Below are positions 11,004-52,709 of a DNA stretch of 64,000 nucleotides, in pieces (position 1 is the stretch's first letter; each line of letters begins with the position of its first letter). The notes beneath the pieces were generated by a model that searched no databases, had not been told where the DNA came from, and saw only the letters and a program-made list of their open reading frames with translations. Source of the DNA: Candidatus Acidiferrales bacterium (GTDB lineage: Bacteria > Bacteroidota > Ignavibacteria > Kryptoniales > JAKASW01); assembly GCA_035515795.1 (NCBI GenBank), contig DATJAY010000012.1, positions 88,532 through 152,531 of the forward strand, given 5' to 3'. Position numbers and translations under genes: made by a program.

Positions 11004-11049
11004 GATTTAATTGCCGGCGTTCAGCCGTTAGGCAGCATCTAAAACGCGG

Positions 11050-14952: not shown

Positions 14953-14996
14953 TTACATTCAAAATCAGTTGCTCCTTTCCGAACCAGGTATTGCGA

Positions 14997-15078: not shown

Positions 15079-15258
15079 CTAACGAAAGTTAGGCGCCGGA
15101 ATAAAATATCTTTGATCGCAAATCAATCATTTGCCGACGAAGAAATATTTTGGTGAAATAGACTCGATGCATCGTTGTCGTGAAGGACCTCCTTGAGACG
15201 ATCTTCACGGATTGGATCCTAGTCGGATGGAACGAAAACTTAGTCAGCAGGAGATAAG

Positions 15259-29715: not shown

Positions 29716-29743
29716 TTGACTTTTCCACCCATTATGGTAAATT
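29716..29743 (+). promoter_or_regulatory. Candidate promoter upstream of the cyclase gene
   Basis: TTGACT at 29716-29721 and TAAATT at 29738-29743 are spaced by 16 bases, 70 bases upstream of the GTG start at 29813. It is the only plausible promoter found at the head of the 16.6-kb plus-strand cluster. Confidence 0.4.
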
Positions 29744-29812
29744 CTTTGAGCAAGACCGAGTGCATTTACAAGAAATCATAGTGGGACAGAACCAAGGAGG
29801 ATGTTAAAATAG

Positions 29813-31960
29813 GTGCGTGATCTTCTAAAGAGCGAATCTAAGTTTTCGCTGTCGTTAGGTGTAGGTGCTGTTGCGGCCCTGGTAGTCTTTTTCTTCATCG
29901 CGACAAACTTAGTTTCATTGATAGACAGACCCGCCCTCGACAATATGTTTCGGCTAGCCTCCCATCCTCAACATGCCGACACTTCTGTTGTCATTGCCGC
30001 AATTGACCAAAAGAGTCTAAATTTTTTCGATAGGCAGCAGCTTGTCGGCTGGCCGTGGCCAAGGGAATTCTACGCTATCTTGGTTGATTACTTCAAGAAG
30101 GGCGGAGCCAAAGCCGTCATTTTTGACATGGATTTCTCTAACAGGTTAAACATCCAGGACACCGAATCCGACGACAGGTTTGCCAATTCTATTGAATCAT
30201 CCGCCAACGTCGTGCTGGCTTCGGTCTTGATCGGCGGTGATTCAGGTGGAACGAGAACTCCTATATCTCGAATAAGTCTTACACGGCAAAGCGGGTACGG
30301 CAGGCTCGACATTCCTGATTTGACCTCGGCCGTCCTTCCTGCAGGCCGGTTTATGCAGAATTGTCGGCAGCTGGGGGTCGCCAATTACATAGTGGACGTT
30401 GACGGAGTCACGAGAAGGATCCCGCTCCTGTTTCAGTATCATGGTACGGTCCTCCCGCAGTTGGCGCTTGCCGGTTTTGCGGTCGGCGAAAATTATTCCG
30501 CGGCCGATATGAACAATTTTCTTCATGCAATTCCGACGGACAGGAACGGCGATTATTTGATAAACTGGTACGGCAAGGGAGGTCCTGACGGAGTTTTTAA
30601 ATATTACTCCATCGGTGCCTTGATAGTTTCTGCCGCCCAGATTATGGAAGGAAGGCCGCCCGAAGTTTCTCCTGCGGCTTTCAAGGATAAATATGTGATT
30701 GTCGGCGGAAGCGCCGTCGGTCTGATGGATTTCAAAGCAACCCCGTTCACGATCTACGAACCCTATCCTGGAATGGAGATCCACGCGACTGTTCTCAGCA
30801 ATTTTTTACAGGGAGATTTTATGCGCGAGGCACCATTATGGATCTCCTATGCTCTCGCTGCAATTTTCGCCCTTGTTATTTCTTGGGCGTTCTTCAAGAT
30901 CGGAAAGATAACTCCTTCCTCTCTCGTAGTTGTCGCCTCAATTGCCGGTTATATCGTGGCTGTATTTATTGCGTTCTACAATTACAGTCTTTGGCTTCCC
31001 TTCGGTGCTCCGATCCTATCAATCATCCTCGGATTTTCTTTTTCCGGTGCAGTTAGTTACGTAACTGAAGGGAGACGCCGCAGAGAGTTGCGGAGAGTCT
31101 TCAACCGGTACATGAGCCCCCGGGTTGTGGACGAGATTCTGACACATCCAAACGAGCTGGAACTCGGCGGGAAGGAAATGGAGGCAACAGTTTTCTTTTC
31201 CGACATAAAAAATTTCACGGGTTTATCGGAAAAAATGTCTCCCAGGGAAGTGGTTGCGAACTTAAACAATTATTTTACTCTAACATGCGACATTGTTTTA
31301 GACCATGGCGGAATGTTGGATAAGTACATTGGTGATGCTATAATGGCGGTCTTCGGGGCGCCTCTTCAGTCGGACAAGCACGCTATAAATGCCTGTTTAG
31401 CCGCGATTGAGGTGCAAGATCAGCTCAAGAAGTATTATTCGCTCGACGAAAATAAAAAAGGACCGGTGTTTGAGACTCGAATTGGACTGAACAGCGGCAA
31501 AATGGTTATCGGCAACATCGGTTCCTTGAAACGATTGGATTACACCGCGATCGGTGACAACGTGAACCTTGCATCAAGGCTCGAAGGAGTGAATAAAGAA
31601 TTTGGCACGAAGATCATCGTGAGTGAATCCACTTATGAACAGGTGAAAGATTCAATTGAAGCGAGAGAACTCGACTTGATCAAGGTAAAGGGTAAACAAA
31701 TTCCCATTCGCATTTACGAACTGATTTGTGAAAAAGGGAAATTACCGGTTTCTCAGGCATATCTCATCGGGATGTTTCATGAAGCACTTTACCATTACCG
31801 ATTAAGAAAGTGGAAAAAGGCATCGGAAATTTTCCGCGAAATCCTGAGAATTTCTCCCGATGACGGCCCGTCCAAGACCTACGCCGCGCGATGCAAAATG
31901 CTCGAGAAAACCGGAGTGCCTAAAGGTTGGGACAGAGTCTTTGTAATGACAACAAAATAA
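29813..31960 (+). CDS. CHASE2 receptor adenylate cyclase (class III)
   Basis: This 715-residue protein has an N-terminal membrane segment (about 15-38), a periplasmic CHASE2 sensor (about 40-325, with F-D-M-D-F and V-G-W-P-W-P-R signatures) and a hydrophobic block of about three helices (about 340-420). A class III cyclase domain (about 455-600) and a C-terminal TPR-like tail follow. The catalytic metal residues are Asp464 (F-S-D-I-K) and Asp508 (Y-I-G-D-A), and the adenine-selecting pair is Lys504 and Asp576 (L-D-Y-T-A-I-G-D), so cAMP is the expected product. The GTG start directly follows a three-codon ATG-TTA-AAA-TAG frame preceded by AAGGAGG. Confidence 0.93.
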   Translation: MRDLLKSESKFSLSLGVGAVAALVVFFFIATNLVSLIDRPALDNMFRLASHPQHADTSVVIAAIDQKSLNFFDRQQLVGWPWPREFYAILVDYFKKGGAKAVIFDMDFSNRLNIQDTESDDRFANSIESSANVVLASVLIGGDSGGTRTPISRISLTRQSGYGRLDIPDLTSAVLPAGRFMQNCRQLGVANYIVDVDGVTRRIPLLFQYHGTVLPQLALAGFAVGENYSAADMNNFLHAIPTDRNGDYLINWYGKGGPDGVFKYYSIGALIVSAAQIMEGRPPEVSPAAFKDKYVIVGGSAVGLMDFKATPFTIYEPYPGMEIHATVLSNFLQGDFMREAPLWISYALAAIFALVISWAFFKIGKITPSSLVVVASIAGYIVAVFIAFYNYSLWLPFGAPILSIILGFSFSGAVSYVTEGRRRRELRRVFNRYMSPRVVDEILTHPNELELGGKEMEATVFFSDIKNFTGLSEKMSPREVVANLNNYFTLTCDIVLDHGGMLDKYIGDAIMAVFGAPLQSDKHAINACLAAIEVQDQLKKYYSLDENKKGPVFETRIGLNSGKMVIGNIGSLKRLDYTAIGDNVNLASRLEGVNKEFGTKIIVSESTYEQVKDSIEARELDLIKVKGKQIPIRIYELICEKGKLPVSQAYLIGMFHEALYHYRLRKWKKASEIFREILRISPDDGPSKTYAARCKMLEKTGVPKGWDRVFVMTTK

Positions 31961-31984
31961 GATGAAAGGGAGGCATTACATTAT

Positions 31985-33208
31985 ATGAGCAAGCTGGTGA
32001 TGGCATTGTGCGCATGTGCCGTCTCATTTTATCTAATGTCCACTCTTTTTGTGAAACGAGATAACGCCTATCTGAGAGAAGGAGCCGGTTCTTTCTACCC
32101 GCTTGTGACCGTATTGCAGCGCGGCGACAAACTTGAACAAATCGAGACGGACGGGAACTGGTATAAGGTTCGCACCCAAAATCAGCAGGAAGGCTGGATT
32201 GCGGCGAATTGTCTGGCTGATAAACAGCCCGAAGGCGAGGTCGTTGAGAAGATTAGCAAAAGCTGGAGTTCAGCGAAAGCATCCCAAAGCGGATTGGCGG
32301 CTGCTATAAAAGGATTTGCCAAGAAGTATGGGAAAGCTAACCCTGGAAACGTGGACGATGTTTATGAACACTTGCAGAAGAATTTTACCGGAAGCGACGT
32401 GGCACGGTTCAACATGCCTCTTGCAGACTATCATTCTCGCAACCGAGGAAGGCTCGACATTGATGATCTCGATCTTGATCAGCCTGAGTATGATCCGTCG
32501 TTCGAGGAGCAGGGGATCGGAGTCGGTATCGCCGCGCGGTTAATATCGAAAGGAATTGTAACCGATCCTGAATTGGTAAGATATGTAAATTTAATTGCCG
32601 CAGTGGTGGCCCAGAATTCCAAAGTATATGATTGGGATTTCACCGTTTTCATTTTAAATGATCCCACCATCAACGGATTCGCATGCCCTGGCGGATATGT
32701 ATTTGTTACGCTCGGCGCGGTCAAGGCTTGCGAAGATGAATCGATGCTTGCCGCGATAATTGCCCACGAGATGGCACACGTGATAAGAAGACATGGTCTG
32801 CAGGAGATGACGAAACGCCTGGTCGACATAAAAGCGGACCAGGCGTACAATGAACTTGAAGAAGAGACCGGAGAATCTGATGTCGACTCGGAACTTGAAT
32901 CGATGGCCGAAAGCAGTTATGATATCGTCGTACACAAGCGGCTGATGGATTACGAAACGGAGGCTGACAAAATTTCAGCTATCTTATGCGCCAATGCAGG
33001 CTACGATCCAACTGGTATTGTTAGGATGGACGCCAAAGTGGCTTCGATGGCGGACACCAACCCCGATATTTTTGGCGACGATTTTTCTCTGCAGAACAAT
33101 CCGGCGGAGCGCTACAACTCCATCAAGAAGTTTGTGGATAATAAATTTACTGGGACCGATCCGGGCGCCCAGATGAAAGACAGATTTGAATCCGAGATCC
33201 GGAAATAG
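31985..33208 (+). CDS. SH3b domain - M48 family zinc metallopeptidase
   Basis: The 407-residue exported protein has an N-terminal signal/anchor (about 1-24), a bacterial SH3 domain (about 26-78, with A-Y-L-R-E-G-A-G-S-F-Y-P and G-W-I-A-A-N) and a linker. An M48 peptidase domain (about 180-400) follows with H-E-M-A-H at 261-265 and the downstream third-ligand segment Y-E-T-E-A-D-K. Such proteins resemble periplasmic BepA-like proteases that survey outer-membrane proteins, while the SH3b domain may bind peptidoglycan. It lies 24 bases after the cyclase gene, which suggests co-transcription. Confidence 0.9.
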   Translation: MSKLVMALCACAVSFYLMSTLFVKRDNAYLREGAGSFYPLVTVLQRGDKLEQIETDGNWYKVRTQNQQEGWIAANCLADKQPEGEVVEKISKSWSSAKASQSGLAAAIKGFAKKYGKANPGNVDDVYEHLQKNFTGSDVARFNMPLADYHSRNRGRLDIDDLDLDQPEYDPSFEEQGIGVGIAARLISKGIVTDPELVRYVNLIAAVVAQNSKVYDWDFTVFILNDPTINGFACPGGYVFVTLGAVKACEDESMLAAIIAHEMAHVIRRHGLQEMTKRLVDIKADQAYNELEEETGESDVDSELESMAESSYDIVVHKRLMDYETEADKISAILCANAGYDPTGIVRMDAKVASMADTNPDIFGDDFSLQNNPAERYNSIKKFVDNKFTGTDPGAQMKDRFESEIRK

Positions 33209-33286
33209 TCATAGAGACCATGGTGACACAGATCAAGAATTTTTTCGTAAATAAATCGTAACATTTAACAAAAAATGGAGGCAAAT

Positions 33287-33895
33287 ATGCGTTATGTTGT
33301 ATCCGTATTATCGAGCTTATTGGTCGTAATTCTAATCGGCTGCGGCGGGTCGAAGTCCATGCAGTCCGCTAACACAGGAGATATTCCTGATTGGTTCACG
33401 AATGTGCCGCAGGATCCGAACTTCCTTTACGCCGCAAACACACAGGCGTCTCAAGATCTTCAACTCGCAATCGACAAGGCGGTTACCGGTGCACGGTCGG
33501 AGATCGGCAGACAGCTCGAAGTTAAGCTGGAAGGTTTGCAGAAGAAATTTTCAGAGGAGACCGGGACAGGGAGCGATGCACAGTTGCTGCAGATGTTCAC
33601 TCAGGCAGAAAAGACGGTGGTTTCGACGACTCTCAACGGCAGCCGCGTGAAGTACCAGAAGCAGGTAAAGGACGGCGAACTTTGGAGATCTTATGTGCTG
33701 GTGGAGTATCCTATCGGCGCAGCGAACACAGCATTGATGGAGCAGATTAAAAACAACAATCAGATGTACACGAGATTTAGAGCTTCTGAAAGTTTCAAAG
33801 AGCTCCAGGATGAAGTTGACAAGTACGATAAGTATAAACAAGAGCAATCGCAGCCGCAGACTCAGCCGCAGCCGCAGCAGCAACAACAGCAGTAA
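33287..33895 (+). CDS. LPP20-type lipoprotein
   Basis: The ATG at 33287 has GGAGG 5 bases upstream; an earlier ATG at 33275 overlaps that site and is rejected. The lipobox L-I-G-C-G-G marks an outer-membrane lipoprotein. The mature domain follows the LPP20 pattern: I-P-D-W-F-T-N-V-P, L-Y-A-A-N-T-Q-A-S, a helix with A-x-x-x-A-R-S-E-I-G-R-Q and a Y-V-L-V-E-Y-P strand. The last 16 residues are a Gln/Pro low-complexity tail. The LPP20 name comes from a Helicobacter lipoprotein; its molecular function is unknown. Related modules recur in this cluster. Confidence 0.88.
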   Translation: MRYVVSVLSSLLVVILIGCGGSKSMQSANTGDIPDWFTNVPQDPNFLYAANTQASQDLQLAIDKAVTGARSEIGRQLEVKLEGLQKKFSEETGTGSDAQLLQMFTQAEKTVVSTTLNGSRVKYQKQVKDGELWRSYVLVEYPIGAANTALMEQIKNNNQMYTRFRASESFKELQDEVDKYDKYKQEQSQPQTQPQPQQQQQQ

Positions 33896-33937
33896 CGTTA
33901 AGGTCTGAAAGCTTAAAGTTTTCCGAAGGACAAAACT

Positions 33938-33980
33938 GTCATTCAAAAAGAGTCCCGCCGATGGCGGGACTCGGAATGAC
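33938..33980. repeat. Nested palindrome, possible bidirectional terminator
   Basis: GTCATTC (33938-33944) complements GAATGAC (33974-33980). Inside, GAGTCCCGCC (33950-33959) pairs perfectly with GGCGGGACTC (33963-33972) around a 3-base loop. It sits between the LPP20 gene and the next gene. It could terminate or attenuate transcription, or be an interspersed repeat of the GTCATTCCGAG type common in bacterial intergenic DNA. Confidence 0.6.
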
Positions 33981-34027
33981 AAATTGCTTTTTATCATTCT
34001 TAAGTTTCTCTGAAGGTTTTCTTAATC

Positions 34028-34762: not shown

Positions 34763-34853
34763 AAATGGATGATAAAATATTGGATTATTTCAGAATCGAC
34801 CGTTTTGTGCCGATATTTCTAAGGGAAGATAACCAAACAAAAGGACGCATGCT

Positions 34854-36101
34854 TTGCAGCATAGATGTTTCGAAAGATTTGATGTTGGGTTGATTGGGCG
34901 GAGCAAGTTAAGCGGGTCATTTTTCATAACCATCGCGGTACTGTCACTTGTGCTGGTCGGGTGCAGTTCTTCAGTGGAAATCTCGAGTGATCCTCCCGGC
35001 GCCGATGTGGATATTAATGGTGAGTCGTACGGCACAACTCCTGTGGACATATCTCTCAGCGATTTTGATTTTAACGTCTATCATCTGGCTCTCACAAAAT
35101 TGGGATACAGGGATAAAACGATAACGCTTCAGGGTGAAATAAAAGTCGGTCCGTTCGTAGGAGGTTTTGTCTTTTGGCCGTTCTGGCTGTGGTGTTACGG
35201 TCCGCAAGACACCTATGTCTTCAAGCTGGAGCCTAAAGGAGGAAATGTCGAACCGACGCCGAAAGAAAATGTACAGCCCGTCATGACCTCTCCCTCTGAC
35301 AGTGACATCGAGAATAATGTTCCCGTGCTTGACAGGAAAAATCCCGATGCAGTTGCGGTGGTGATCGGCATATCTCATTACAAGAGCAGCGATATCCCGG
35401 AAGTTTCATACGCCGTCAAAGGAGCAAATCTTGTAAGAAATTATTTTGAGAAGACTTTCGGCGTCGACGAGCGGAAGATTATTTTTGCAGCGGACGAAAA
35501 CGCTTCGCTTTCAGATTTCAGGAAAATCTTTGAAGAAAAACTGAGAGATTACATCACGCCGGGGAAGAGCGACGTTTACGTTTATTACCAGGGCCATGGT
35601 GTGCCGGATCCCGAGACGAAAGAAGCGTACTTCGTTCCTTATGACTGCGATCCATCTTATGCTAAATCGACGGGTTATTCATTGAAGGAGTTTTACGACA
35701 GACTCGCCGCGCTTCCGGCGAAGAGCGTAACCGTAATTCTAGATGCATGCTTCAGCGGGGCAAGCGCCGGCGGAACACTCGTCAAAAATATCAGCCCGCT
35801 ATATATGAAAGTGAAGACTCCCGTCGTCTCGATGAATAACGGCGTCGTGTTCAGTTCGTCGACGGGAGAACAGGTCTCATGCTGGTATCCTGAGAAAAAG
35901 GAGAGTCTGTTCACATATTATTTTCTAAAAGGTTTGACAGGAAGTGCTGATTTGGACAATGATGGCACGATAACTAATGCGGAAATGCAGACGTATCTTG
36001 AACAAAATGTTCCCGTCGAGGCAAGGTACTTGAGCAATCGCGAGCAGACTCCGCAGATGATGACGAAAGACCCCGACGGACTGCTGCTGAAGTATAAATG
36101 A
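34854..36101 (+). CDS. PEGA-domain caspase-like (C14) protease, lipoprotein
   Basis: Counting from the TTG at 34854, a lipobox V-L-V-G-C gives Cys37. A TTG at 34890 would give a more usual 24-residue signal and may be the true start. A PEGA domain follows (about 41-95, S-S-D-P-P-G-A-D-V-D-I-N-G), then an unusual aromatic hydrophobic stretch (F-W-P-F-W-L-W, about 105-115) and a caspase/metacaspase domain (about 165-400). That domain has His248 in Y-Y-Q-G-H-G and Cys299 in L-D-A-C-F-S-G, so the dyad is intact. PEGA domains are thought to contact the cell wall. This would be an envelope-anchored cysteine protease. Confidence 0.9.
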   Translation: MQHRCFERFDVGLIGRSKLSGSFFITIAVLSLVLVGCSSSVEISSDPPGADVDINGESYGTTPVDISLSDFDFNVYHLALTKLGYRDKTITLQGEIKVGPFVGGFVFWPFWLWCYGPQDTYVFKLEPKGGNVEPTPKENVQPVMTSPSDSDIENNVPVLDRKNPDAVAVVIGISHYKSSDIPEVSYAVKGANLVRNYFEKTFGVDERKIIFAADENASLSDFRKIFEEKLRDYITPGKSDVYVYYQGHGVPDPETKEAYFVPYDCDPSYAKSTGYSLKEFYDRLAALPAKSVTVILDACFSGASAGGTLVKNISPLYMKVKTPVVSMNNGVVFSSSTGEQVSCWYPEKKESLFTYYFLKGLTGSADLDNDGTITNAEMQTYLEQNVPVEARYLSNREQTPQMMTKDPDGLLLKYK

Positions 36102-36209
36102 TTTTCGCGCGCAAGCTTTCCGAAAGCTTTTCCGCGCCCTCGGTTCGTGACTCAATAACGCCGGCTCCTTTGATTTGCCGAGGTGAATTAAATATAGAGG
36201 CTAGAAAGT

Positions 36210-37124
36210 ATGCGAGTTGAAAAATCGTCGTTGCATGCCCGTGTGGTGAACGTCGGAATTGTCGTATCCCTTTGCCTATTTCTCTTTTCCTCCAAGTGCT
36301 GGTCTCAGTCCGACAGCCTTTCGGTTGAATCGACAGGGCATTGTTACAGCTCGGAGGTAACACCCGAAGACGGGTGGCGGCGCGCGCTACAGGACGCCGA
36401 AGCAAATGCAATTAGAACGGCTCTCGGAATAACTGTGAGCGGACATACTTTTCAGATGACCTCCGAGTCCATGAAGGGAGATAAGCCTACGGATTACCTC
36501 AGTACTTTTTCGGAACTGAATACTACAACGACTTCGGGAAGGGTCATTGCGGAACACATTATGGATTCTACCCTTGGTACGGAAGGAAATCTTCCCGTTT
36601 ACACCATCAAAATACAGGCCACGGTCGCGAAAGATAAAGGCGAGCCCGACCCGGGTTTTCAAGTGGAAATCCATTTGGATAAAGACGTATTCTATGATCG
36701 CGGCGGCATTGACCGTAACGACGCCGTTGATTTTTCGATTTCTGCCACCATGGATTGCTATCTGTACATTTTCGATATCATGGCAAACGATTCCGTGATG
36801 CTTCTTATGCCGAACGCTTACTTTACCGACAACTTTTACTCCGCCGCAGAAGGCGCGAAAGGCTTTCAACGGAAACTTGCAAAGCTGCCGTATGATCTAC
36901 GGGTTGGATTGCCTCCGAAGAAAGACTTGACGACCGAGATGATTTATGTCGTGGCATTAAAGAAGAAAATTGATTTTCACTCATCGAGTATGACACAAGA
37001 ATCATCGGGAATCTTGCCGACATACCAGAGCGCAATTCTTGATTTACAAAAATGGCTCGTAAGGATCCCGCAGGATTTGAGAACAACGGCGTCGGGGCCG
37101 TTCACGATAAAGAGGTTAAAATGA
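36210..37124 (+). CDS. DUF4384 exported protein with LPP20/FlgT-like N-terminal module
   Basis: After a signal peptide (about 1-33, S-S-K-C-W-S-Q), the N-terminal module reads D-G-W-R-R-A-L-Q-D-A-E-A-N-A-I, like the LPP20/FlgT family helix. The C-terminal half (about 150-300) is a DUF4384 domain, with D-C-Y-L-Y-I-F-D-I-M, D-S-V-M-L-L-M-P-N and a late V-V-A-L-K-K strand. DUF4384 proteins often neighbour caspase-like proteases, as here. The function is unknown. The stop overlaps the start of the next gene (ATGA), so the two products are probably made in fixed ratio. Confidence 0.82.
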   Translation: MRVEKSSLHARVVNVGIVVSLCLFLFSSKCWSQSDSLSVESTGHCYSSEVTPEDGWRRALQDAEANAIRTALGITVSGHTFQMTSESMKGDKPTDYLSTFSELNTTTTSGRVIAEHIMDSTLGTEGNLPVYTIKIQATVAKDKGEPDPGFQVEIHLDKDVFYDRGGIDRNDAVDFSISATMDCYLYIFDIMANDSVMLLMPNAYFTDNFYSAAEGAKGFQRKLAKLPYDLRVGLPPKKDLTTEMIYVVALKKKIDFHSSSMTQESSGILPTYQSAILDLQKWLVRIPQDLRTTASGPFTIKRLK

Positions 37125-37624
37125 AGCGAAAAATATTTTTCATGTTTTGTGTCTGGGGCATCCCTTTCTTGCTGTCTGACGGCAACTTTGCATTTTCACA
37201 GGAGGTCACCGTCTCGAATGTCTCATTCTCGATGAGGGACAGTGACGTCGTGGTTCATTACGATCTCAATGGACCGGCAGATGGGAACTACCAGGTGAGA
37301 CTGATTCTGAGAAGGGAGTCTCAGTCTTTTTTCAAAATGTTTCCCAAAGACATCGAGGGTGATGTTGGAACCGGCGCATTTTCTGGAAGGAATCGGGAGA
37401 TCGTGTGGCGTCTCTATGAAGATGTCCCTCATGGACTGGATGGAGACGACTATTATTTCGAAGTAAACGCCGCACTGCAGCGAGTGGAAAAAGGTGGAGG
37501 AGCGTCATGGCTATACTATGTGGGCGGCGCGTTGGTCGCGGGAGGTGCCGTAGTCTATTTCGGTACTGATTTATTCAAAAAGTCCGGCGGGAGTCAGTTA
37601 CCGACTCCGCCATTGAGACCTTAA
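37121..37624 (+). CDS. Small exported protein with C-terminal membrane anchor
   Basis: The ATG at 37121 overlaps the preceding TGA. The 167-residue protein has a signal peptide (about 1-27, F-A-F-S-Q) and one beta-sandwich-like domain (about 28-128) with V-V-V-H-Y-D-L-N-G and I-V-W-R-L-Y-E-D segments. A C-terminal hydrophobic helix (about 133-151, W-L-Y-Y-V-G-G-A-L-V-A-G-G) and a short Pro-rich tail complete it. I do not recognise the family. The position between DUF4384 and a second caspase gene suggests a membrane partner. Confidence 0.7.
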   Translation: MKRKIFFMFCVWGIPFLLSDGNFAFSQEVTVSNVSFSMRDSDVVVHYDLNGPADGNYQVRLILRRESQSFFKMFPKDIEGDVGTGAFSGRNREIVWRLYEDVPHGLDGDDYYFEVNAALQRVEKGGGASWLYYVGGALVAGGAVVYFGTDLFKKSGGSQLPTPPLRP

Positions 37625-37642
37625 GAGAACGGAGATGATTCA

Positions 37643-39430
37643 ATGAATAAAATTTCCTTTATATGCCTGTTGTTCTTCACCGGCCTTGCCTATGGTCAAA
37701 CGGTTAGCGGGAAGAGCCAAACGGGATCTCTAAAACCTGTTTCGCCGACTATCCCGCCCGCGGAAAACCAAGGGACCAGCGTGAACGTGAAAAACCAGAT
37801 AAACGCATACAGTCCATTTCTGACCGCAGAAATTACTTTTAAAGATTCATCAGCCGATAATATCCTGGGTGCGGACGAAAGTGCTCAGGTTCTCGTGTCG
37901 CTTCGGAACATCGGGGGAAAACCTGCCGAGTCGTGCGAAGTGGAGCTTGTGCCGTCGGTGGAAAACTCCGGTATTGATGTCATAAATCCTCCGACCATCC
38001 TGCACCTTGCACCCAATGAGGAAATGTCGACGCGCGTACTTCTGAGAGGCTCTCATGCCATTTCGACGGGCAATGTCGAGTTTGTGCTGAAGGTTCTGGA
38101 GAAAGACGGATTTGACCTCGATCCCGAAAAGATTCTTGTCGTGCCCACCTTGGCATTCCAGCCGCCAAGCGTGGATCTGGTCGACTATGGTGTTCAAGAT
38201 CCCAGCCGGACGGGAAAGATCCAGAAACGCGAAAACGTATCCGTGACATTGAGGCTGCAAAACAGAGGTGGCACCACGAGCCATGGTACAGTCGCTTCGC
38301 TTACCCTGGGAGACAACGTCATCTCTCTCGATTCATCAGCGGTGGAGGAGAGCGGCATCTTTCATTCGACATTTAACCTTGGTGACTTGAAACCCGGAGA
38401 CTACAAGGATGTGACCACAAATTTGATCACCAACAACCGTGCAACGGATGTTCGTATAGACATTGTGGTGACCGAGAGAAGCGGAGAACACTCTACAGAC
38501 ACAACCCTTGAACTTCCATTCAACATTCCAACAAAGAAAACAGAAGAGATAGTAGTTGCCGCCAGGAAGGCAGAAGACGTGAATATTCCGAATGTGGCAA
38601 ACTTGAAACTTGACATTGTCGACAATCTGCCCGTCGCTTCCCAGACGAAACCTGATGCCTTTGCTGTAGTTATTGGGAACAAGGATTACACCAATGCTCC
38701 CGGAGTGGAATTTGCGTTGAATGATGCAGCAATCATGAAGCGCTATCTGACTACCACCATGGGATTTCAAGCTGAGAATATCATATATCTTGAGAACGCT
38801 TCGCAATCTGACATGACCCGTGTTTTTGGAAACGAATCGAACTACAAAGGACAATTGTACGATTATGTTAGAAAAGGGAGTGAGATTTTTGTCTATTACA
38901 GCGGCCATGGCGCGCCGGATACCGACTCGAAAGAAGGATACATTGTCCCGGTTGACTGCGATCCGGCTCATGTTGCCTTAAACGGATATTCGCTTAAGCT
39001 GCTTTATTCAAATCTTGACAAAATCGATGCAGAGAAAGAGTTGAAGCACATAACGGTTGTCTTAGACGCGTGCTTTTCGGGCAGTTCGGTCAAAGGCTCT
39101 CTTCTTGCCAACGTTAGTCCCATCTATATTGCAGTGAGCAAAGATGCGATGGCTTCTCCGAATGCTACTATCGTAACAAGCGCAAGCGGGGACCAGGTGA
39201 GCGGCTGGTACAGAGACAAGCAGCAGAGTCTCTTCACTTACTTCTTCTTAAAGGGACTGCAGGGCTCGGCAGATTATGAACATAATAAAACCATCACCGC
39301 GAAAGAGCTGTATGAGTTTACCGCAGACGAAGTCAATGGTGTCCCATATTGGTCAAGACGTCTGAACAGCAAAACACAAACGCCGACATTTTATGGAAGT
39401 GATTGGGTGATTTATGAAGGCGCAAAGTAA
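37643..39430 (+). CDS. Secreted caspase-like (C14) protease with Ig-like domains
   Basis: The 595-residue exported protein has a signal peptide (about 1-18, G-L-A-Y-G-Q) and no lipobox. Two beta-sandwich CARDB/NEW3-like domains (about 55-170 and 175-290), recognisable by V-L-V-S-L-R-N-I-G-G and V-T-L-R-L-Q-N-R-G-G, precede a caspase/metacaspase domain (about 335-585). That domain has His422 in Y-Y-S-G-H-G and Cys477 in L-D-A-C-F-S-G. The post-cysteine block, with S-L-F-T-Y-F-F-L-K-G-L and G-S-A-D, closely parallels the PEGA caspase 2 kb upstream, so the two are paralogues. It starts 18 bases after the previous gene. Confidence 0.9.
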   Translation: MNKISFICLLFFTGLAYGQTVSGKSQTGSLKPVSPTIPPAENQGTSVNVKNQINAYSPFLTAEITFKDSSADNILGADESAQVLVSLRNIGGKPAESCEVELVPSVENSGIDVINPPTILHLAPNEEMSTRVLLRGSHAISTGNVEFVLKVLEKDGFDLDPEKILVVPTLAFQPPSVDLVDYGVQDPSRTGKIQKRENVSVTLRLQNRGGTTSHGTVASLTLGDNVISLDSSAVEESGIFHSTFNLGDLKPGDYKDVTTNLITNNRATDVRIDIVVTERSGEHSTDTTLELPFNIPTKKTEEIVVAARKAEDVNIPNVANLKLDIVDNLPVASQTKPDAFAVVIGNKDYTNAPGVEFALNDAAIMKRYLTTTMGFQAENIIYLENASQSDMTRVFGNESNYKGQLYDYVRKGSEIFVYYSGHGAPDTDSKEGYIVPVDCDPAHVALNGYSLKLLYSNLDKIDAEKELKHITVVLDACFSGSSVKGSLLANVSPIYIAVSKDAMASPNATIVTSASGDQVSGWYRDKQQSLFTYFFLKGLQGSADYEHNKTITAKELYEFTADEVNGVPYWSRRLNSKTQTPTFYGSDWVIYEGAK

Positions 39431-39516
39431 AATGCAAGAGCTACGACCGATGCTTCTTGTCTTGACTCTGCTGAAATGAGATGTTTGATTCTATCAAATT
39501 TTTTTGGAGAATATAC

Positions 39517-42500
39517 ATGCGCAAGATTTTAATTCTGTCTATGGTGATTGTGTTGGCACAAACTTACGCCGCCGAAAGCCCTTCCCGGCACGGAAAAGGG
39601 AAAAAGGTTCTGGGATATACTATCATTGTCAAACCGTCGTCGGAGAAAAAGGCTTTTCAAAGCGTGGTCAGTGCCGAGAAGCAATATAAACCTGGAGATG
39701 CAGCCGGCCTAGTTAACCACCTTCCTCCATCAGGCGGATCGGGAAAAATTTTTAACATGCAGTCGGTTGAGTCTGGAGTAAACCTTACTCCTTATCAACC
39801 AGCGGGGTGGAGTGACAAGATAGTAATCTATAAGAACCGGACTAATATTACCGGTTCTATCCCGACCAGTCTCACCGATGCTTCCGTAATTTATCCCACG
39901 GACAGTGTCTTTGTGGCTTGGGCAATTACGAATAACGGTACAGATAACATTTCGACGGGGTTTTATACGGATGTTTATGTTGACAACGTTGAAATTTATA
40001 ATGAATACCTTGCTTCGCTCAGCGGCGGTTATTACTGGGCATGGTGGGACGGCAATATTGGTAAACTAAGCCCCGGGGTGCATACGTTTGAAGTGTATGT
40101 TGATCCCACAAGCGCTATCGCAGAAACGAACGAATCTGATAACATATACACCCGGCAGTATACCATCTCTCCCGGTCTTCCGAATGCTCCGACCAATTTG
40201 AAGGCCGTTGCGGTGTCTTCGGGACAGATCGACTTAACCTGGACGGCGAGTACCGGCAGTCCAGCTTACTATAGAGTTCTTCGCTCTACGTCATCACCGT
40301 CCGCTTTCAGTTCGATTGATACTCTCCGAGATTCGTCAGCCACGGAATGTTTCAGTGTTTTCCTCAATCCCAATACAACTTATTACTACGAAGTCATTGC
40401 GGGAAACAGTACGGGTGAATCTTCGCCGAGTGCAACGGTGTCTGCAACGACACCGGGATATTCTTCCAATTGGACAATCCAAAACAAAGATAGTGTTTCA
40501 TGGTGGGCTATTAAGGCGGTTGATACGAGTACGGTATGGGCGTGCGGCTACAGTGCGGTGACAGGTGCAGGTAATGCTTACATTGAGCGCTCAACGGACG
40601 GCGGCACAACCTGGGTGAATTGCAGCGGCAGCCTCGCGTCCATAAAGGCAGCAATTTCAACTATAGAAGCGACGAGTCGAACTCAGGCATGGGCTGGCGA
40701 TCAATTTGGAAATATTTATTATACGAGCAACGGCGGAAGTACATGGGTGACTCAAAGCAGCGGCACTGCAAATTTCATTAACGCGATAAAATATGTATCC
40801 TCAAACACCTTGGTCGCGGTTGCAGATCCGATTAACCAGGGAGATCCCTTTTTGATTTTACGAACAACGGACAACGGTTCAACGTGGGCAGTTGTTACCG
40901 GTACACCAAGTTCACGTTCGGATGTCCACGAATTCTGCATTGCCAACTCAGTCTGTATGGTGGGAGACACCATATTCGCGGGAACACAGTATTATGGCGA
41001 AAGCGACGGCAGGGCGATTGCCTCCATCGATGGGGGAATAACCTGGTACATTCCTTCGTGGCATGGTCTGCCATGGTATTTTCAATACTCTCCCACGAGC
41101 ATCTCGTTCAGAAATGGATTGACGGGAATTGTAACAGGAGATTCGGGGTTCGCAGAATATTGCAACGATGCTCCCTGGACGAGCATTAGTAAATTTGTTC
41201 CGGATTGGATTAATGCTTCGCAGGCAATTTCAGGAACTCTGACATACTGGGCCGCTGGAGAGGACGGAGTATTCCACTCTACCGACGACGGCTCGACATG
41301 GAGCATTGAAAGCGTTCCGTTCCAGAAGTCAATCGGCGCGATCGCATTCCCAACCGCGACTAAAGGTTGGGTGGCATCCGGAGAAGGAATGATTGCACGA
41401 TATTCAGCTACCACTTCATCACCGTCATCTCCAGCGCTTGTTGGTCCTACGAACAGCTCAACCGGAGCGCCGACCAATCCCACACTGTCATGGAATGCTT
41501 CCGCCGGAGCAACAAGTTACAGGCTGCAGGTGTCAACGTCTGCGGCTTTTGTGCCGATTTTTTTCGACAGGTCCAACATCCTGACTACCTCGCAAAGCGT
41601 AAGCGGTTTGTCTAGGAGCACGACGTACTATTGGCGTGTCGATGCGTCTAACGTGGTCGGCCCGAGCAGCTGGTCTCCTACATGGAGCTTCACCACGTTT
41701 GCCTATCCGTCTTCCATACAGGTGTCGACGCAGTTTATGCCGCCGGGCACGCTGGACCAAACGAGCTATAGGATTTTCGGTTTGCCGGGAGATATCGATA
41801 TCGCGTTGTCCGGCGTTGTTTCCGGTACGCAGGGGAAGGACTGGGATGCGTATTGGGATAATGGCGACGATCAAAACTATTATGTAGAGTACGATGGAAG
41901 CGGGAGATTTTATTTCATGCCCGGAACGGCATTCTGGATACTTAGCAAGAATCCGTTTTCCGTTTCACAATTTGCATCGACCGTGCCTCTGGATACGAGC
42001 GCCTGCTTTTCGATTACTCTCCATAGCGGTTGGAATCTCATCTCCAATCCTTTTGAAAAAAGCGTTTCATGGTCTGCAATTCAAACTCTGAACGGTGTCG
42101 CTCAGCCAATCTACTCCTTCAATGGGAGTTACAGTACGCAAGTCTCGTTCGATCCTTATGTCGGGTACTATTTCTACAACAACCAAAACCTCGTGTCGCT
42201 CAAGGTTCCTTACATAACGACGGTCCAGAACAAGAAAGAAGAACGACCGTGGAAAGTGAGTTCGGATCAGAAAAACGAGGTCAAGCTTTCCCTTTTATCG
42301 AAAAAGAACCAGCCGCTTCCGATCAGTGTCGGCTTCTATACCGAAGCGTCCGATACTCTCGACAATGTCAATATCTTTGCCCCCCCGGACAACTTTGAAG
42401 ACGTGAGAATTCAAGTCGTCGATCAAAATGTCGGAGGTAATTGGAAAAAATTGTACGTGGATTTCAGGAATGAGATTGGGAAAGGACAGTCCTTCGATAT

Positions 42501-43008
42501 CGAAGTGAAGAATCTGTCGGGGGATCCGGTAACGATGAATTCATTTGTGCATGGATTGGAAGATTACGGCGTCTATTTGGTTGACAATGGTACGCACGCG
42601 TTTTACAACCTGAAGACGAGCGACAGCATTTTAATTGGCGGAGTGTACAAGTACAAGAATTATGCTTTGTTGGTCGGTGATGGGAATTACATCGACTCGA
42701 TTAGAGCCGTCAACACACCTAGGAGCTATCAGTTGTACCAGAACTATCCGAACCCGTTCAATCCGTCAACAATAATTCGATACGAAATTCCCGGAAAAGC
42801 CGAAGTCACGCTCGGGGTCTATAATGTTCTTGGTCAACTGGTGCGGACGCTTGTCAATCAGGTCCAGCAATCTGGCTATTACGAGGTGGAGTTTGATGGA
42901 ACGCATCTGGCATCAGGTGTCTATTTCTGCAGGCTTACGGTAAATGGAATCGAATCACTGAATGCTGGAACCTACGACCAGATAAAGAAAATGACATTGA
43001 TCAAATGA
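39517..43008 (+). CDS. Giant T9SS cargo protein: CARDB, FN3, Ycf48/BNR propeller, FN3, sorting domain
   Basis: The start is the ATG at 39517, preceded by GGAGA; an earlier ATG at 39481 has no such site. The 1164-residue product has a signal peptide (about 1-18, T-Y-A-A-E) and a CARDB domain (about 100-215). Next are a fibronectin III domain (about 220-315) and a Ycf48/BNR-type propeller (about 320-632) with repeated S-T-D-G-G-T-T-W / S-N-G-G-S-T-W motifs. A second FN3 (about 635-730), a beta-rich region and a T9SS sorting domain (Y-P-N-P-F-N-P-S-T near 1083) follow. It is probably surface exposed. No catalytic site was seen. Confidence 0.87.
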   Translation: MRKILILSMVIVLAQTYAAESPSRHGKGKKVLGYTIIVKPSSEKKAFQSVVSAEKQYKPGDAAGLVNHLPPSGGSGKIFNMQSVESGVNLTPYQPAGWSDKIVIYKNRTNITGSIPTSLTDASVIYPTDSVFVAWAITNNGTDNISTGFYTDVYVDNVEIYNEYLASLSGGYYWAWWDGNIGKLSPGVHTFEVYVDPTSAIAETNESDNIYTRQYTISPGLPNAPTNLKAVAVSSGQIDLTWTASTGSPAYYRVLRSTSSPSAFSSIDTLRDSSATECFSVFLNPNTTYYYEVIAGNSTGESSPSATVSATTPGYSSNWTIQNKDSVSWWAIKAVDTSTVWACGYSAVTGAGNAYIERSTDGGTTWVNCSGSLASIKAAISTIEATSRTQAWAGDQFGNIYYTSNGGSTWVTQSSGTANFINAIKYVSSNTLVAVADPINQGDPFLILRTTDNGSTWAVVTGTPSSRSDVHEFCIANSVCMVGDTIFAGTQYYGESDGRAIASIDGGITWYIPSWHGLPWYFQYSPTSISFRNGLTGIVTGDSGFAEYCNDAPWTSISKFVPDWINASQAISGTLTYWAAGEDGVFHSTDDGSTWSIESVPFQKSIGAIAFPTATKGWVASGEGMIARYSATTSSPSSPALVGPTNSSTGAPTNPTLSWNASAGATSYRLQVSTSAAFVPIFFDRSNILTTSQSVSGLSRSTTYYWRVDASNVVGPSSWSPTWSFTTFAYPSSIQVSTQFMPPGTLDQTSYRIFGLPGDIDIALSGVVSGTQGKDWDAYWDNGDDQNYYVEYDGSGRFYFMPGTAFWILSKNPFSVSQFASTVPLDTSACFSITLHSGWNLISNPFEKSVSWSAIQTLNGVAQPIYSFNGSYSTQVSFDPYVGYYFYNNQNLVSLKVPYITTVQNKKEERPWKVSSDQKNEVKLSLLSKKNQPLPISVGFYTEASDTLDNVNIFAPPDNFEDVRIQVVDQNVGGNWKKLYVDFRNEIGKGQSFDIEVKNLSGDPVTMNSFVHGLEDYGVYLVDNGTHAFYNLKTSDSILIGGVYKYKNYALLVGDGNYIDSIRAVNTPRSYQLYQNYPNPFNPSTIIRYEIPGKAEVTLGVYNVLGQLVRTLVNQVQQSGYYEVEFDGTHLASGVYFCRLTVNGIESLNAGTYDQIKKMTLIK

Positions 43009-43248
43009 GCTTGCAACAGGTGCAGCTCAAAGGGAACATGCCAGCGGTCGGCGGGGGAATCAAAATATGAAGGTGACAAAAGATTCCTTTTCTTGTCGCG
43101 ATTTCATGTTATGTGGAGGTGTGATTCTTCTCGCCTTTCGTTTCTGCTTCCATGGGAATGCCGTTTCGCTTTTTTAACGAATAAAAAGTTCAGTCGATGT
43201 AATGATAGAAAGAGTACACGAATTTACAAAAGCAAAAGGAGGACGCTT

Positions 43249-43845
43249 ATGAAATACAAGATGTTTTTGATTCTGATTCCATTGCTTCTAATCGGATGTT
43301 CCTCATCGCGGCAGGTGTCACGCGTTTCCGCGGATACCGATGTCGACCTCAGCGGGAATTGGAACGATACAGATTCTCGGCTGGTGGCGGAGCAGATGAT
43401 ATCGAGTCTCACGACGAAGCCATGGCTCGATGATTTTACTTCGCAAAATTCAAAAAAGCCGGCAGTGATCGTGGGAACAGTCCGCAATCTCAGTTCCGAA
43501 CATATCCAGACCGACGCTTTCATCGATGACATTGAGCGCGAGCTGGTGAACAGCGGCAAAGTTACGTTTGTCGCAAGCAAGAAAGAACGCCAGGAAGTTC
43601 GCCAAGAACGTCTCGACCAACAGACCAATGCTACGGAAGAATCGGCGAAGAAATTGGCTGCAGAAACCGGCGCTGACTACATGCTCCAAGGAAGCATCAA
43701 AGACATCGTCGACAGGGTTGAGGGAAAAGAAGTGAAGTACTACCAAGTGGACATGGTATTGGTTGATCTTCAGACGAGTGAAAAAGTCTGGATGGATACG
43801 AAAAAAATTAAGAAAGTCATCGACCGTCCCAGTTCGTCCTGGTGA
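43249..43845 (+). CDS. LpoB-like lipoprotein (penicillin-binding-protein activator family)
   Basis: The ATG at 43249 follows AAAGGAGGA and opens a lipoprotein with lipobox L-I-G-C-S-S (Cys17). The 198-residue protein shows the LpoB/CsgG-like fold: V-D-L-S-G-N-W-N-D-T-D-S, then P-A-V-I-V-G-T-V-R-N, F-I-D-D-I-E-R-E-L and G-A-D-Y-M-L-Q-G-S-I. The final K-V-W-M-D-T-K-K-I-K strand is also present. In Enterobacteria LpoB activates PBP1b; here the family is usually found beside LPP20 and COG3014 genes, as in this window, so the local role may differ. Its stop overlaps the next gene. Confidence 0.88.
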   Translation: MKYKMFLILIPLLLIGCSSSRQVSRVSADTDVDLSGNWNDTDSRLVAEQMISSLTTKPWLDDFTSQNSKKPAVIVGTVRNLSSEHIQTDAFIDDIERELVNSGKVTFVASKKERQEVRQERLDQQTNATEESAKKLAAETGADYMLQGSIKDIVDRVEGKEVKYYQVDMVLVDLQTSEKVWMDTKKIKKVIDRPSSSW

Positions 43846-45401
43846 GGCAGGTACAGATGAGAAGTTGCTGGCGTTTGTTTAGTGTCCGACATGCCGAAAG
43901 AGTGTGTTTTTTCAGAGAGGGAACTTTGCTTTCGCGTTCTTTTCTCAGAAGCGGGGGTCATCTCCGCGGACCAAAGAACTTTTCTGCCCACCCGCGAGGA
44001 ACGAGTTCAACCCGTGAAAGGTGGATCTCCGATGTTCTCCTCGCTATCTTTCTATCCGCCTTTTTTATTTGCTCCTGCTCTTCAGTGCAGACTCAGAAGA
44101 AACAATTCGCGGAGGTCGATAAGGACGTCGCCGCGCAAAACTTCGGCGCCGCTGCAAATTCGCTTGAAAAATCGAAGGACAAATATTACGCAAAAAAAGA
44201 TCGCGTCCTTTATTACTTAGATCTGGGTATGCTGTACCATTATGCATACGCTTGTCCAAGTAGTAATGAGGCGCTGAGTTCGGCAGAGGAAGGGATAGAC
44301 GAGCTCTTTACGAAGAGCATTTCCAAGGGCGCTGAGTCTCTTCTCCTGAACGATAATGCTCTCGACTACAGCGGCGAGGATTACGAGAATGTTTATCTGA
44401 ACATTTTCAAAGCGCTGAATTACCTCAATCAAAAGCATTTCGACGATGGCTTTGTGGAGGTCAGGCGGGCAGATAATAAACTCTCTCAGCTCGAGGACAA
44501 ATATCAGAAAATTGCGGATGATTTCAACAAATCCAGCGATGCAAAGAAGAAATTCAAAGTTGCCGATGTGCATTTCTCGAGTTCGGCACTTGCAAGCTAC
44601 GTCAGTCTTCTTATGTACCGCGCGGAGGGAAAATTCGACGATGCCAGGATAGATGCGCAGAAGATCGGCGATGCATGGTCGACCGAGGGCTCCGTCTATG
44701 ATTTTCCTCAGCCGAATTTGGACGGCTATCTTGACGAGACTTCAAAAGCGAGGATGAATGTAATCGGTTTTGTCGGGAAATCGCCTGAACTTTTCGCGCA
44801 TGTGTTCACGATTCATACCATCAAGGATGCAGTCATAATTTACCAGTCCGACGGCAAAAAGGAAGAAAAGCTGGAAGTCATACCATGGCAGGACATGAAA
44901 AGCGGTTATCATTTCAAGTTTTCTTTGCCGTACATGGAAAAGAAGGGCACCACGATCGGCAAGATAGCGATTGAAATGAACGGCGGTGAAGTCGCTTCCC
45001 TCCAGGCGATTGAGAGCATTGAGAACGTTGCTCAGGAGACGTATAAGCTGCACGAGGGAATTACTTATCTGAAGACAATCATCCGTACCGTTGTCAAGGG
45101 ACTTCTAAATGAGAAGGCGAATGAGGAGCTTGACAAGAAGACGGGCGGAGGCGGCTGGGGAGAGCTGACACGTGCGGTGACAAGCACGGCCGTGGACATC
45201 AGTGAAAATGCCGATCTTCGGCTTTCAAGATACTTCCCGGCGAAAGCGTTAGTGGGCGAATGCCTTGTCGATCCCGGGACGTATCATCTTGTGGTAAAGT
45301 ATTATTCTCTTGACGGCAGGCTCGTGCATTCAGATGATAAAGGTGCTGTTAATGTGAGCGCGGACTCGTTGAATTTATACGAATCATTCTTTCTAAACTA
45401 A
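43842..45401 (+). CDS. COG3014-like lipoprotein with TPR-like helical domain
   Basis: The mature protein has TPR-like helices (A-E-V-D-K-D-V-A-A-Q-N-F and Y-Y-L-D-L-G-M-L-Y-H-Y-A) and S-A-L-A-S-Y-V-S-L-L-M-Y-R. This matches the COG3014 family that travels with LpoB- and LPP20-type genes. A lipobox-like F-I-C-S-C-S-S lies at 44063-44083, but the upstream 60-70 codons are atypical and charged. The GTG at 43842, an ATG at 43857 or a TTG at 43926 all give an oddly long n-region. An ATC beside AAAGGTGG would give an ideal signal peptide, so the start is unresolved. Its function is unknown. Confidence 0.78.
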   Translation: MRQVQMRSCWRLFSVRHAERVCFFREGTLLSRSFLRSGGHLRGPKNFSAHPRGTSSTRERWISDVLLAIFLSAFFICSCSSVQTQKKQFAEVDKDVAAQNFGAAANSLEKSKDKYYAKKDRVLYYLDLGMLYHYAYACPSSNEALSSAEEGIDELFTKSISKGAESLLLNDNALDYSGEDYENVYLNIFKALNYLNQKHFDDGFVEVRRADNKLSQLEDKYQKIADDFNKSSDAKKKFKVADVHFSSSALASYVSLLMYRAEGKFDDARIDAQKIGDAWSTEGSVYDFPQPNLDGYLDETSKARMNVIGFVGKSPELFAHVFTIHTIKDAVIIYQSDGKKEEKLEVIPWQDMKSGYHFKFSLPYMEKKGTTIGKIAIEMNGGEVASLQAIESIENVAQETYKLHEGITYLKTIIRTVVKGLLNEKANEELDKKTGGGGWGELTRAVTSTAVDISENADLRLSRYFPAKALVGECLVDPGTYHLVVKYYSLDGRLVHSDDKGAVNVSADSLNLYESFFLN

Positions 45402-45418
45402 ATGAAAATGAGGCGTCT

Positions 45419-46432
45419 ATGATTTCCATGTTCCTCCACCTTCTTTGCTTTGCGATTATATTTTTCCCGAAAGCGCAGGATCGCAAACCCGACTGGATCA
45501 ACGACCCCGAGAAGAGTTATCCGAATTCTCAATACATGACAGCGGTAGGCACGGGTGATTCCCGAAAGGAAGCAGAAAATTCCGCTGCCTCCAACCTGTC
45601 AAACATTTTTGAGTCAAAAATAAAATCGGAGGAGACGATCAATGCTCGGTATCAGGAGCTGATGAAATCCTCGAATCAATCGTCCCTCGAAAGTCAGACC
45701 AACATCAACAAAAATATTTCCGTTTCTTCGGAGCAAACTCTCTTTAACGTTCGCTATCCCGAGAGCTATACTGACAATCTCGGCAAGGTATATGTCCTCG
45801 GAGTTATCGAGCGGGAACCTACGGCGGCGATCTACAAGAACAAAATGGATGACAATAATGCTCGGGTCGCGGAGTTCGTAAAAAAATACGAGGAGTTGAA
45901 AGATCCGATTAAAAAATATGCGAATATCAGCGCCGCGCTTGTTACGGCAAAGGTCAACGAAACGCTCGGACAACAGCTCCAGATAATTATGCCCGGCATG
46001 ATGGTACAGTCTGATACGGCGTACTCTATCGGCCGAATTACGGAGAAGTGCACGGATGCGCAAAAGGGGATTCCGTTCGCGGTGAACATCTCTGGTGCCG
46101 AAAAGGGTGACGTGGAAGGTTTTATCGGCGACATGCTTTCCGGGCTCGGATTCACCGTGGCTGAAAAGGGCGTTCTGACAATCACGGGGAACGAAAAGGT
46201 CGAGCCGCTCGATCTAAAAAATGATCAGATGAAATTTGCACGATGGAGTTACCAGCTTTCAGTACTCGACCCGTCAGGGACAGCCATTATATCTCTCTCT
46301 GAAAACGGCAGGGAAGCTCACGTAACCTACGATGAGGCTGTTGCACGCGCAATGAGAACGATGCGCGATAAAATAAAAACTGATTTCTCAAAAAAAATAA
46401 ACAGTTATTTTGACGGTCTCGTGATGAAGTAA
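45419..46432 (+). CDS. LPP20-family exported protein
   Basis: The 337-residue protein lies 17 bases after the COG3014-like gene. A signal peptide (about 1-20, F-P-K-A-Q) is followed by a classical LPP20 module: K-P-D-W-I-N-D-P, Y-M-T-A-V-G-T-G-D-S-R-K-E-A-E-N-S-A and the strand G-K-V-Y-V-L-G-V-I-E-R. A coiled or helical region follows, and the C-terminal domain has V-T-Y-D-E-A-V-A-R-A-M-R-T-M. No lipobox is visible. With lpoB-like and COG3014-like genes it forms the conserved three-gene set. It ends the plus-strand cluster. Confidence 0.85.
   Translation: MISMFLHLLCFAIIFFPKAQDRKPDWINDPEKSYPNSQYMTAVGTGDSRKEAENSAASNLSNIFESKIKSEETINARYQELMKSSNQSSLESQTNINKNISVSSEQTLFNVRYPESYTDNLGKVYVLGVIEREPTAAIYKNKMDDNNARVAEFVKKYEELKDPIKKYANISAALVTAKVNETLGQQLQIIMPGMMVQSDTAYSIGRITEKCTDAQKGIPFAVNISGAEKGDVEGFIGDMLSGLGFTVAEKGVLTITGNEKVEPLDLKNDQMKFARWSYQLSVLDPSGTAIISLSENGREAHVTYDEAVARAMRTMRDKIKTDFSKKINSYFDGLVMK

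Positions 46433-49623: not shown

Positions 49624-52708
<3,085 letters not shown>

Positions 52709-52709
<1 letters not shown>

What the first reader, a model, noticed from the sequence alone, without database searches (positions are those of the whole stretch)
29716..46432. Sixteen-kilobase single-strand envelope locus: receptor cyclase, M48 protease, two caspase-like proteases, DUF4384, LPP20 modules, LpoB-like and COG3014-like proteins
Seen: twelve consecutive plus-strand genes with short gaps or overlaps, almost all with signal peptides or lipoboxes, and two proteases with intact His-Cys dyads. Known: caspase-like domains, CHASE2 and DUF4384 often occur together or fused in bacteria, and LpoB-like, COG3014 and LPP20 genes form a recurrent trio. 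Inference: a cAMP-linked envelope stress or remodelling system in which exported caspase-like proteases act on surface or periplasmic partners. I know of no described system with this full composition.
Basis: partly seen in the sequence, partly recalled or inferred. Interest (0 to 1): 0.75.

Follow-up and report, generated by a model that had tools for sequence, protein, structure and literature searches.

The report
Modular surface-protease and cAMP locus
Twelve neighbouring bacterial genes join a secreted giant surface protein, two exported caspase-like proteases, a set of outer-membrane lipoproteins and a membrane receptor that makes cyclic AMP; the same building blocks are found joined again and again in different orders in other bacteria, which suggests that they work together in sensing or processing events at the cell surface.

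Summary
In detail: twelve same-strand genes (A-L, 29,813-46,432), mostly exported, with two intact His-Cys caspase-like proteases. The title omits the longest gene, I, a 1175-aa type IX secretion (T9SS) cargo. The block lies between 2HADH and NHL, genes that abut (gap -6 to 152 bp) in nine congeners, so it is one discrete insertion. In congeners it separates into modules: A-B (CHASE2 cyclase + M48), C-D-J-K-L (LPP20/LpoB/COG3014-like lipoproteins) and (E)-F-G-H-I (DUF4384, small G, caspase, cargo). The closest relative, G007, carries them at separate places, yet they are joined in different orders elsewhere: F-G-H-I-C-A-B-D(-J) in three congeners, I-G-A-B-C-D in a second family, I-G-caspase in a third, caspase-DUF4384-CHASE2-cyclase in two more. 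Of ~142 T9SS-tail proteins only I carries its conserved C-terminal module; relatives of that module sit beside G, behind exchangeable N-terminal display domains. Best reading: a modular surface system in which exported caspase-like proteases act on a dedicated T9SS surface protein and lipoproteins report its state to a CHASE2 adenylate cyclase. The linkage is shown; protease substrate and signal flow are inferred. 'Stress' is unsupported; the cAMP link is plausible. No paper found describes this set.

The parts
29813..31960 (+). A: CHASE2 receptor adenylate cyclase (715 aa), metal Asp464/Asp508, purine-specifying Lys504/Asp576
   Evidence: PF05226 1e-51, PF00211 2.1e-26; catalytic residues by alignment
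31985..33208 (+). B: SH3b + M48 metalloprotease, HEMAH at 261
   Evidence: PF08239, PF01435; paired with A in five families
33275..33895 (+). C: LPP20-type lipoprotein
   Evidence: PF02169 sub-threshold here, 9/11 homologues match at E<=0.01; lipobox LIGC
33950..33972 (.). 10-bp-stem hairpin in the C-D gap, unique in the genome
34028..34762 (+). D: exported protein with C-terminal LPP20 module
34854..36101 (+). E: PEGA-caspase lipoprotein with EF-hand-like loop; the true start may lie downstream of 34854
   Evidence: PF00656 1.4e-14, PF08308 1.3e-7; dyad intact
36210..37124 (+). F: exported DUF4384 protein
   Evidence: PF14326 3e-8
37118..37624 (+). G: small exported beta-sandwich protein with hydrophobic segment and conserved C-terminal PPxR
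   Evidence: AlphaFold pLDDT >90 over about residues 30-122; alignment
37643..39430 (+). H: exported Ig/CARDB caspase-like protease
   Evidence: PF00656 8.8e-15; phmmer to Metacaspase-1 7qp0 E=0.0023; dyad
39481..43008 (+). I: T9SS cargo, variable N-terminus + conserved C-terminal module (aa 745-1065) + sorting tail
   Evidence: PF18962 7.3e-8; module specificity; variable N-termini
43249..43845 (+). J: LpoB-like lipoprotein
   Evidence: TIGR02722 above cut-off; PF13036 8.8e-44
43842..45401 (+).
   Evidence: no family for the window copy; conserved between J and L
45419..46432 (+). L: exported LPP20 protein
   Evidence: PF02169 1.6e-9
28706..29608 (+). left flank: 2-hydroxyacid dehydrogenase; abuts NHL in nine congeners (empty site)
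46464..47351 (-). right flank: NHL-repeat protein

Best explanation
A modular surface-display, processing and signalling locus. I is exported by the T9SS and displayed through a variable N-terminal region on a conserved C-terminal module. G is its dedicated membrane-tailed partner. The exported caspase-like protease H (and the lipoprotein caspase E) acts on I or on a partner of I. F (DUF4384) and the C/D/J/K/L lipoproteins form a periplasmic or outer-membrane assembly that carries the state of that event to the CHASE2 sensor of A, which makes cAMP for CRP-type regulators. B is a periplasmic M48 quality-control or activating protease tied to A. Shown: gene content, catalytic residues, G-I exclusivity, block insertion, repeated joining of the modules. 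Inferred: substrate, complex formation, direction of signalling.
For: Nine congeners have the empty site and the window has all twelve genes there. Modules are joined in different orders: F-G-H-I-C-A-B-D-J in G010 with a short H lacking CARDB, F-G-H-I-C-A-B-D in G003/G012, I-G-A-B-C-D in G071, I-G-caspase in G204, CHASE2/papain-DUF4384/G/caspase/I in G215. Caspase-DUF4384-CHASE2 cyclase sits together in seven genomes of two further families, with a different caspase clade. The I module is single-copy in its genome although about 142 T9SS tails exist, and every assessable copy is beside G. Dyads intact 40/40. T9SS translocon and C25 sortase-type proteins present; cNMP effectors present. Precedent: CHASE2 cyclases signalling through an outer-membrane protein (PMC13001267) and clan-CD processing of T9SS cargo (PMC4560394).
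Against: I-G pairs exist without a caspase, and A-B pairs without anything else. G001/G008 have C-A-B-D-J-K-L with no caspase. In G007 the modules are apart. A conserved cleavage site in I was not identified. The fold of the I module was predicted poorly. Co-transcription is untested; the 240-bp I-J gap could hold a promoter.
Confidence: 0.4

Rival explanations
1. Surface-protein maturation only: H/E and G form a dedicated maturation or anchoring device for I, alongside the general C25 sortase. The cyclase and lipoprotein modules are neighbours with their own tasks.
For: G-I and caspase-G-I are the tightest links and occur without A-D/J-L in f39, f32, f10 and in stand-alone F-G-H-I loci; clan-CD proteases already process T9SS cargo (PMC4560394).
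Against: Does not explain caspase-DUF4384-CHASE2 trios in f4/f17, which mostly have no cargo next to them, nor repeated joining with A-B and C-D.
Confidence: 0.25
2. Insertion hotspot with unrelated envelope genes: the 2HADH/NHL junction collects exported genes and the joint presence has no common function.
For: G002 holds a different 12.8-kb content at the same site, and G004 holds other genes after 2HADH. Modules are separate in G007. No composition signal.
Against: The same modules are joined at other sites and in other families and in different orders; G010's joined set lies about 90 kb from its empty site.
Confidence: 0.2
3. One reading: cAMP-linked envelope stress or peptidoglycan remodelling, with J acting as an LpoB-type synthase activator.
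For: J passes the LpoB model; C-D-J-K-L is conserved; M48 resembles BepA-type proteases below cut-off.
Against: No stress regulator or peptidoglycan enzyme in the locus; the T9SS cargo and G are unexplained.
Confidence: 0.1
4. Conflict or self-recognition: I's variable N-terminus recognises kin or phage and the caspases execute killing or shedding.
For: Exchangeable N-terminal domains (FG-GAP, LamG, DUF5689, CARDB/BNR) on a conserved C-terminus; prokaryotic caspases occur in conflict systems (PMC8195603).
Against: Caspases are exported, not cytosolic; only domain-level cyclase and weak caspase PADLOC matches, and none for the other seven proteins scanned; no immunity gene seen.
Confidence: 0.05

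Closest known systems
PorU (C25) T9SS sortase system, Porphyromonas gingivalis
   Same: Clan-CD Cys/His protease acting on T9SS cargo at the surface (PMC4560394)
   Different: H/E are C14, not C25; the genome already has C25 proteins; here the protease is genetically tied to one cargo type
CyaD1/CyaD2/CyaK CHASE2 cyclases with NsrA, Sinorhizobium meliloti
   Same: CHASE2 adenylate cyclase fed by an envelope protein, output through a CRP-family regulator (PMC13001267)
   Different: No NsrA counterpart identified; the envelope side here is caspases, DUF4384/LPP20 proteins and a T9SS cargo
Prokaryotic metacaspase/orthocaspase architectures and operons (surveys)
   Same: C14 p20 domain with His-Cys dyad; a CHASE2-caspase fusion (PMC3501461, PMC2853523) and DUF4384- and WD40-orthocaspase architectures in cyanobacteria (PMC7475262)
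   Different: The cyanobacterial CHASE2 fusion was read as having a cytoplasmic caspase; here the caspases are exported and encoded separately from a CHASE2 cyclase
HP1457 (LpoB homologue) with HP0018 in Helicobacter
   Same: LpoB-family lipoprotein linked to another envelope lipoprotein of unknown function (PMC11394524)
   Different: No caspase, cyclase or T9SS described there

Membership tests
Peptidase C14 (caspase domain) | Pfam PF00656 above cut-off | tested here: met
   E 54.8 and H 55.5 bits against 21.4
Peptidase C14 (caspase domain) | His-Cys catalytic dyad | tested here: met
   H aligned to Metacaspase-1 7qp0
Peptidase C14 (caspase domain) | proteolytic activity and P1 specificity | not testable with these tools
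   needs enzyme assay
EACC1-associated caspase (NF047832) | score above curated cut-off 140 | tested here: not met
   69.5 and 63.8 bits
CHASE2 receptor adenylate cyclase | CHASE2 + class III cyclase with two metal Asp and Lys/Asp purine residues | tested here: met
Pycsar anti-phage system | PycC-type cyclase with a cognate Pycsar effector | tested here: not met
   PycC domain-level hits to A only; no effector hit among the ten proteins scanned
T9SS substrate | C-terminal sorting domain and machinery in the same genome | tested here: met
   PF18962 33.0 bits against 27; SprA_N and C25 in genome
PorU-type sortase | C25 family domain | tested here: not met
   H and E match C14, not C25; C25 encoded elsewhere
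LpoB (TIGR02722) | equivalog score above cut-off | tested here: met
   115.6 against 110.55
LpoB (TIGR02722) | activates a PBP1B-type synthase | not testable with these tools
   partner not tested
LPP20 (PF02169) | score above cut-off | tested here: inconclusive
   L met (38.5 against 25.9); C 19.5 and D 20.4 below, but homologues match
COG3014 | profile match of K | not testable with these tools
   no COG library; no Pfam hit and no NCBIfam hit near cut-off

The most novel reading that the evidence does not exclude
A new kind of transmembrane surface-sensing system: an exchangeable T9SS surface sensor-protein on a fixed C-terminal module, processed by its own exported caspase-like protease, whose state is relayed through DUF4384/LPP20 lipoproteins to a CHASE2 adenylate cyclase, so that an extracytoplasmic caspase cut becomes a cytoplasmic cAMP signal.
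Probability: 0.2. Interest if true: 0.85.

Novelty: new variant of a known kind. Interest (0 to 1): 0.6.

Why it matters
Prokaryotic caspases are usually discussed as cytosolic death or defence enzymes. Here several different caspase clades, all exported, are repeatedly tied to envelope lipoproteins, a T9SS surface protein and a CHASE2 adenylate cyclase. If the link is functional it gives bacterial caspases a defined extracytoplasmic role and a candidate substrate, gives DUF4384, LPP20 and the unnamed G family a testable place, and supplies CHASE2 cyclases with a candidate upstream protein input. The module logic makes each step testable by single deletions.

Tried and rejected
Generic T9SS tail as the explanation for I: rejected, because the C-terminal module is single-copy in the genome against about 142 tails. 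C25 sortase identity of H/E: rejected. Defence system (PADLOC): only domain-level cyclase and weak caspase hits. Recent foreign DNA or transposon: no composition shift and no terminal repeats of 9 bp or more. The C-D hairpin as a dispersed repeat: rejected, single copy. AlphaFold of the I module: pLDDT 57, not used for a fold search. Fold search with G: no match at E<=0.001, best DUF3823 at 0.012 with TM 0.37, not interpretable. The search for related loci in genome contigs gave one distant caspase only. Linkage search in the wider phylum: caspases and CHASE2 cyclases were not adjacent outside the class in the sample. Literature searches found no paper with this composition; an LpoB/COG3014/LPP20 search returned only one Helicobacter paper. 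PDB searches with profiles of K and C found nothing at E<=0.1.

Full report
WHAT IS THERE. The window lies in a 4.08-Mb genome. Between 29,813 and 46,432 there are twelve same-strand genes, here lettered A-L, with intergenic distances of -7 to 240 bp. Families: A CHASE2 + class III cyclase; B SH3 + M48; C, D, L LPP20-type; E PEGA-caspase lipoprotein; F DUF4384; G unassigned; H CARDB-caspase; I a 1175-aa protein with CARDB/fn3 domains and a T9SS sorting tail; J LpoB; K unassigned (the COG3014 label could not be tested). A carries both metal aspartates and the Lys/Asp pair typical of adenylate cyclases. E and H are the only PF00656 matches in the genome.

THE BLOCK IS ONE INSERTION. The flanking genes 2HADH and NHL converge and abut, with gaps of -6 to 152 bp, in nine congeners (G001, G003, G005, G007-G012); for eight of these the junction sequence was read, and for G010 it follows from the match coordinates. 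In the window they are separated by the twelve genes. In G002 the same site carries a different 12.8 kb that includes a T9SS cargo and a 172-aa piece similar to E's PEGA region without its caspase domain; G004 has other genes after 2HADH; G006 has a small gene. The site is therefore a hotspot. No composition shift and no terminal repeat of 9 bp or more was found.

THREE MODULES. A search of thirteen genomes of the genus with a concatenated query and annotation of the regions shows modules M1 = A-B, M2 = C-D-J-K-L, M3 = (E)-F-G-H-I. C-D-J-K-L stands alone in G010, G003, G009 and G012. F-G-H-I stands apart from the others in G007 (with a degenerate F in its second copy), G003, G010 and G009. G001 and G008 have C-A-B-D-J-K-L (G008 across two contigs) and no caspase match.

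REPEATED JOINING. G010, G003 and G012 have F-G-H-I-C-A-B-D (followed by J in G010), built with a short H that lacks the CARDB part. The order differs from the window's A-B-C-D-E-F-G-H-I-J-K-L. The caspase tree groups the window's H with G007's (0.999), while the separation of the short-H group itself is weakly supported (0.40), so independence of the two joins rests mainly on order and architecture. In other families: G071 has I-G-A-B-C-D without a caspase, G204 I-G-caspase, G215 CHASE2 / papain-DUF4384 / G / caspase / I, three genomes of f28 G-caspase. In families f4 and f17 seven genomes share WD40-caspase / exported DUF4384 / CHASE2 cyclase (the WD40 and DUF4384 assignments were run on one representative). 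In f2, of the same order, LPP20 proteins, a CsgG/LpoB-like protein and an LPP20-DUF4384 protein precede a caspase. These caspases fall into different clades, so the association was made more than once or has been inherited with strong divergence. In a phylum-wide sample of 118 genomes, caspase and CHASE2 cyclase were not adjacent outside the class.

I AND G. Own-genome search finds about 142 T9SS sorting tails, but the 745-1065 module of I occurs once, and in the genus the copies that were found, wherever the contig allows a check, sit beside G. Around this constant part the N-terminal regions differ completely: FG-GAP repeats, laminin-G, DUF5689, CARDB/BNR. I-G pairs recur in five further families, in f10 and f32 inside a polysaccharide-export setting with a Wza-type protein and a WecA-like transferase, and in f10 also a GH18 lipoprotein (the WecA reading is by eye). 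G is a signal peptide, a confidently predicted beta-sandwich (pLDDT >90), a hydrophobic stretch and a C-terminal PPxR that is conserved in 12 of 13 sequences, with the two prolines invariant. No PDB fold match reached E 0.001.

MECHANISM. Most likely (0.4) the modules form one surface system: T9SS displays I; the exported caspase acts on I or its partner; lipoproteins and DUF4384 pass on the state; the CHASE2 cyclase converts it into cAMP. Shown: content, residues, exclusivity of G-I, insertion as a block, repeated joining. Inferred: substrate, assembly, signal direction. Precedents exist for two separate steps: clan-CD cleavage of T9SS cargo by PorU (PMC4560394) and CHASE2 cyclases fed by the outer-membrane protein NsrA (PMC13001267). 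The main rivals are maturation only (0.25) and a hotspot without common function (0.2).

KNOWN OR NEW. Caspase surveys report a CHASE2 fusion, WD40 and DUF4384 with caspases, mostly in cyanobacteria (PMC3501461, PMC2853523, PMC7475262). None of the papers found describes an exported caspase-DUF4384-CHASE2-cyclase association or its link to T9SS cargo. The library searched is open-access only, so absence there is not proof of novelty.

Noticed in passing
L145 (G002:C73), 3722-16269: The 2HADH/NHL site of a congener holds a different 12.8 kb: a T9SS cargo, a 172-aa piece similar to E without its caspase domain, a response regulator-like gene and a 1323-aa gene. The site is an insertion hotspot.
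   Followed up: partly
33938-33984: A long hairpin (TGTCATTC...GAGTCCCGCC-GAT-GGCGGGACTC...GAATGACA) lies between C and D; it is single-copy in the genome and lies at a junction where relatives have A-B inserted.
   Followed up: partly
L115, L116, L122, L124: I-G pairs without a caspase sit in loci with polysaccharide-export genes (Wza-type lipoprotein, WecA-like transferase, an OMP and, in f10, a GH18 lipoprotein) in families f10 and f32.
   Followed up: partly
window 37118-37624 and homologues (alignment A2): G ends in a conserved PxPPxR motif after a hydrophobic segment, in lineages with and without a caspase nearby.
   Followed up: no
L041:14053-15546, L070:4738-6231, L120:14454-15938: A ~495-aa exported protein with no Pfam match follows D in several relatives; it is not in the window's block.
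   Followed up: partly
L048, L071, L073: Caspase next to a giant cargo, and cargo / ~660-aa LPP20-DUF4384 protein / C, at further loci of the genus: more combinations of the same parts.
   Followed up: partly
window 50370-52709: The NAD-dependent DNA ligase reading frame is 779 aa, longer than usual, with what look like two insertions.
   Followed up: no
genome G000: About 142 T9SS sorting-tail proteins in one 4-Mb genome.
   Followed up: no
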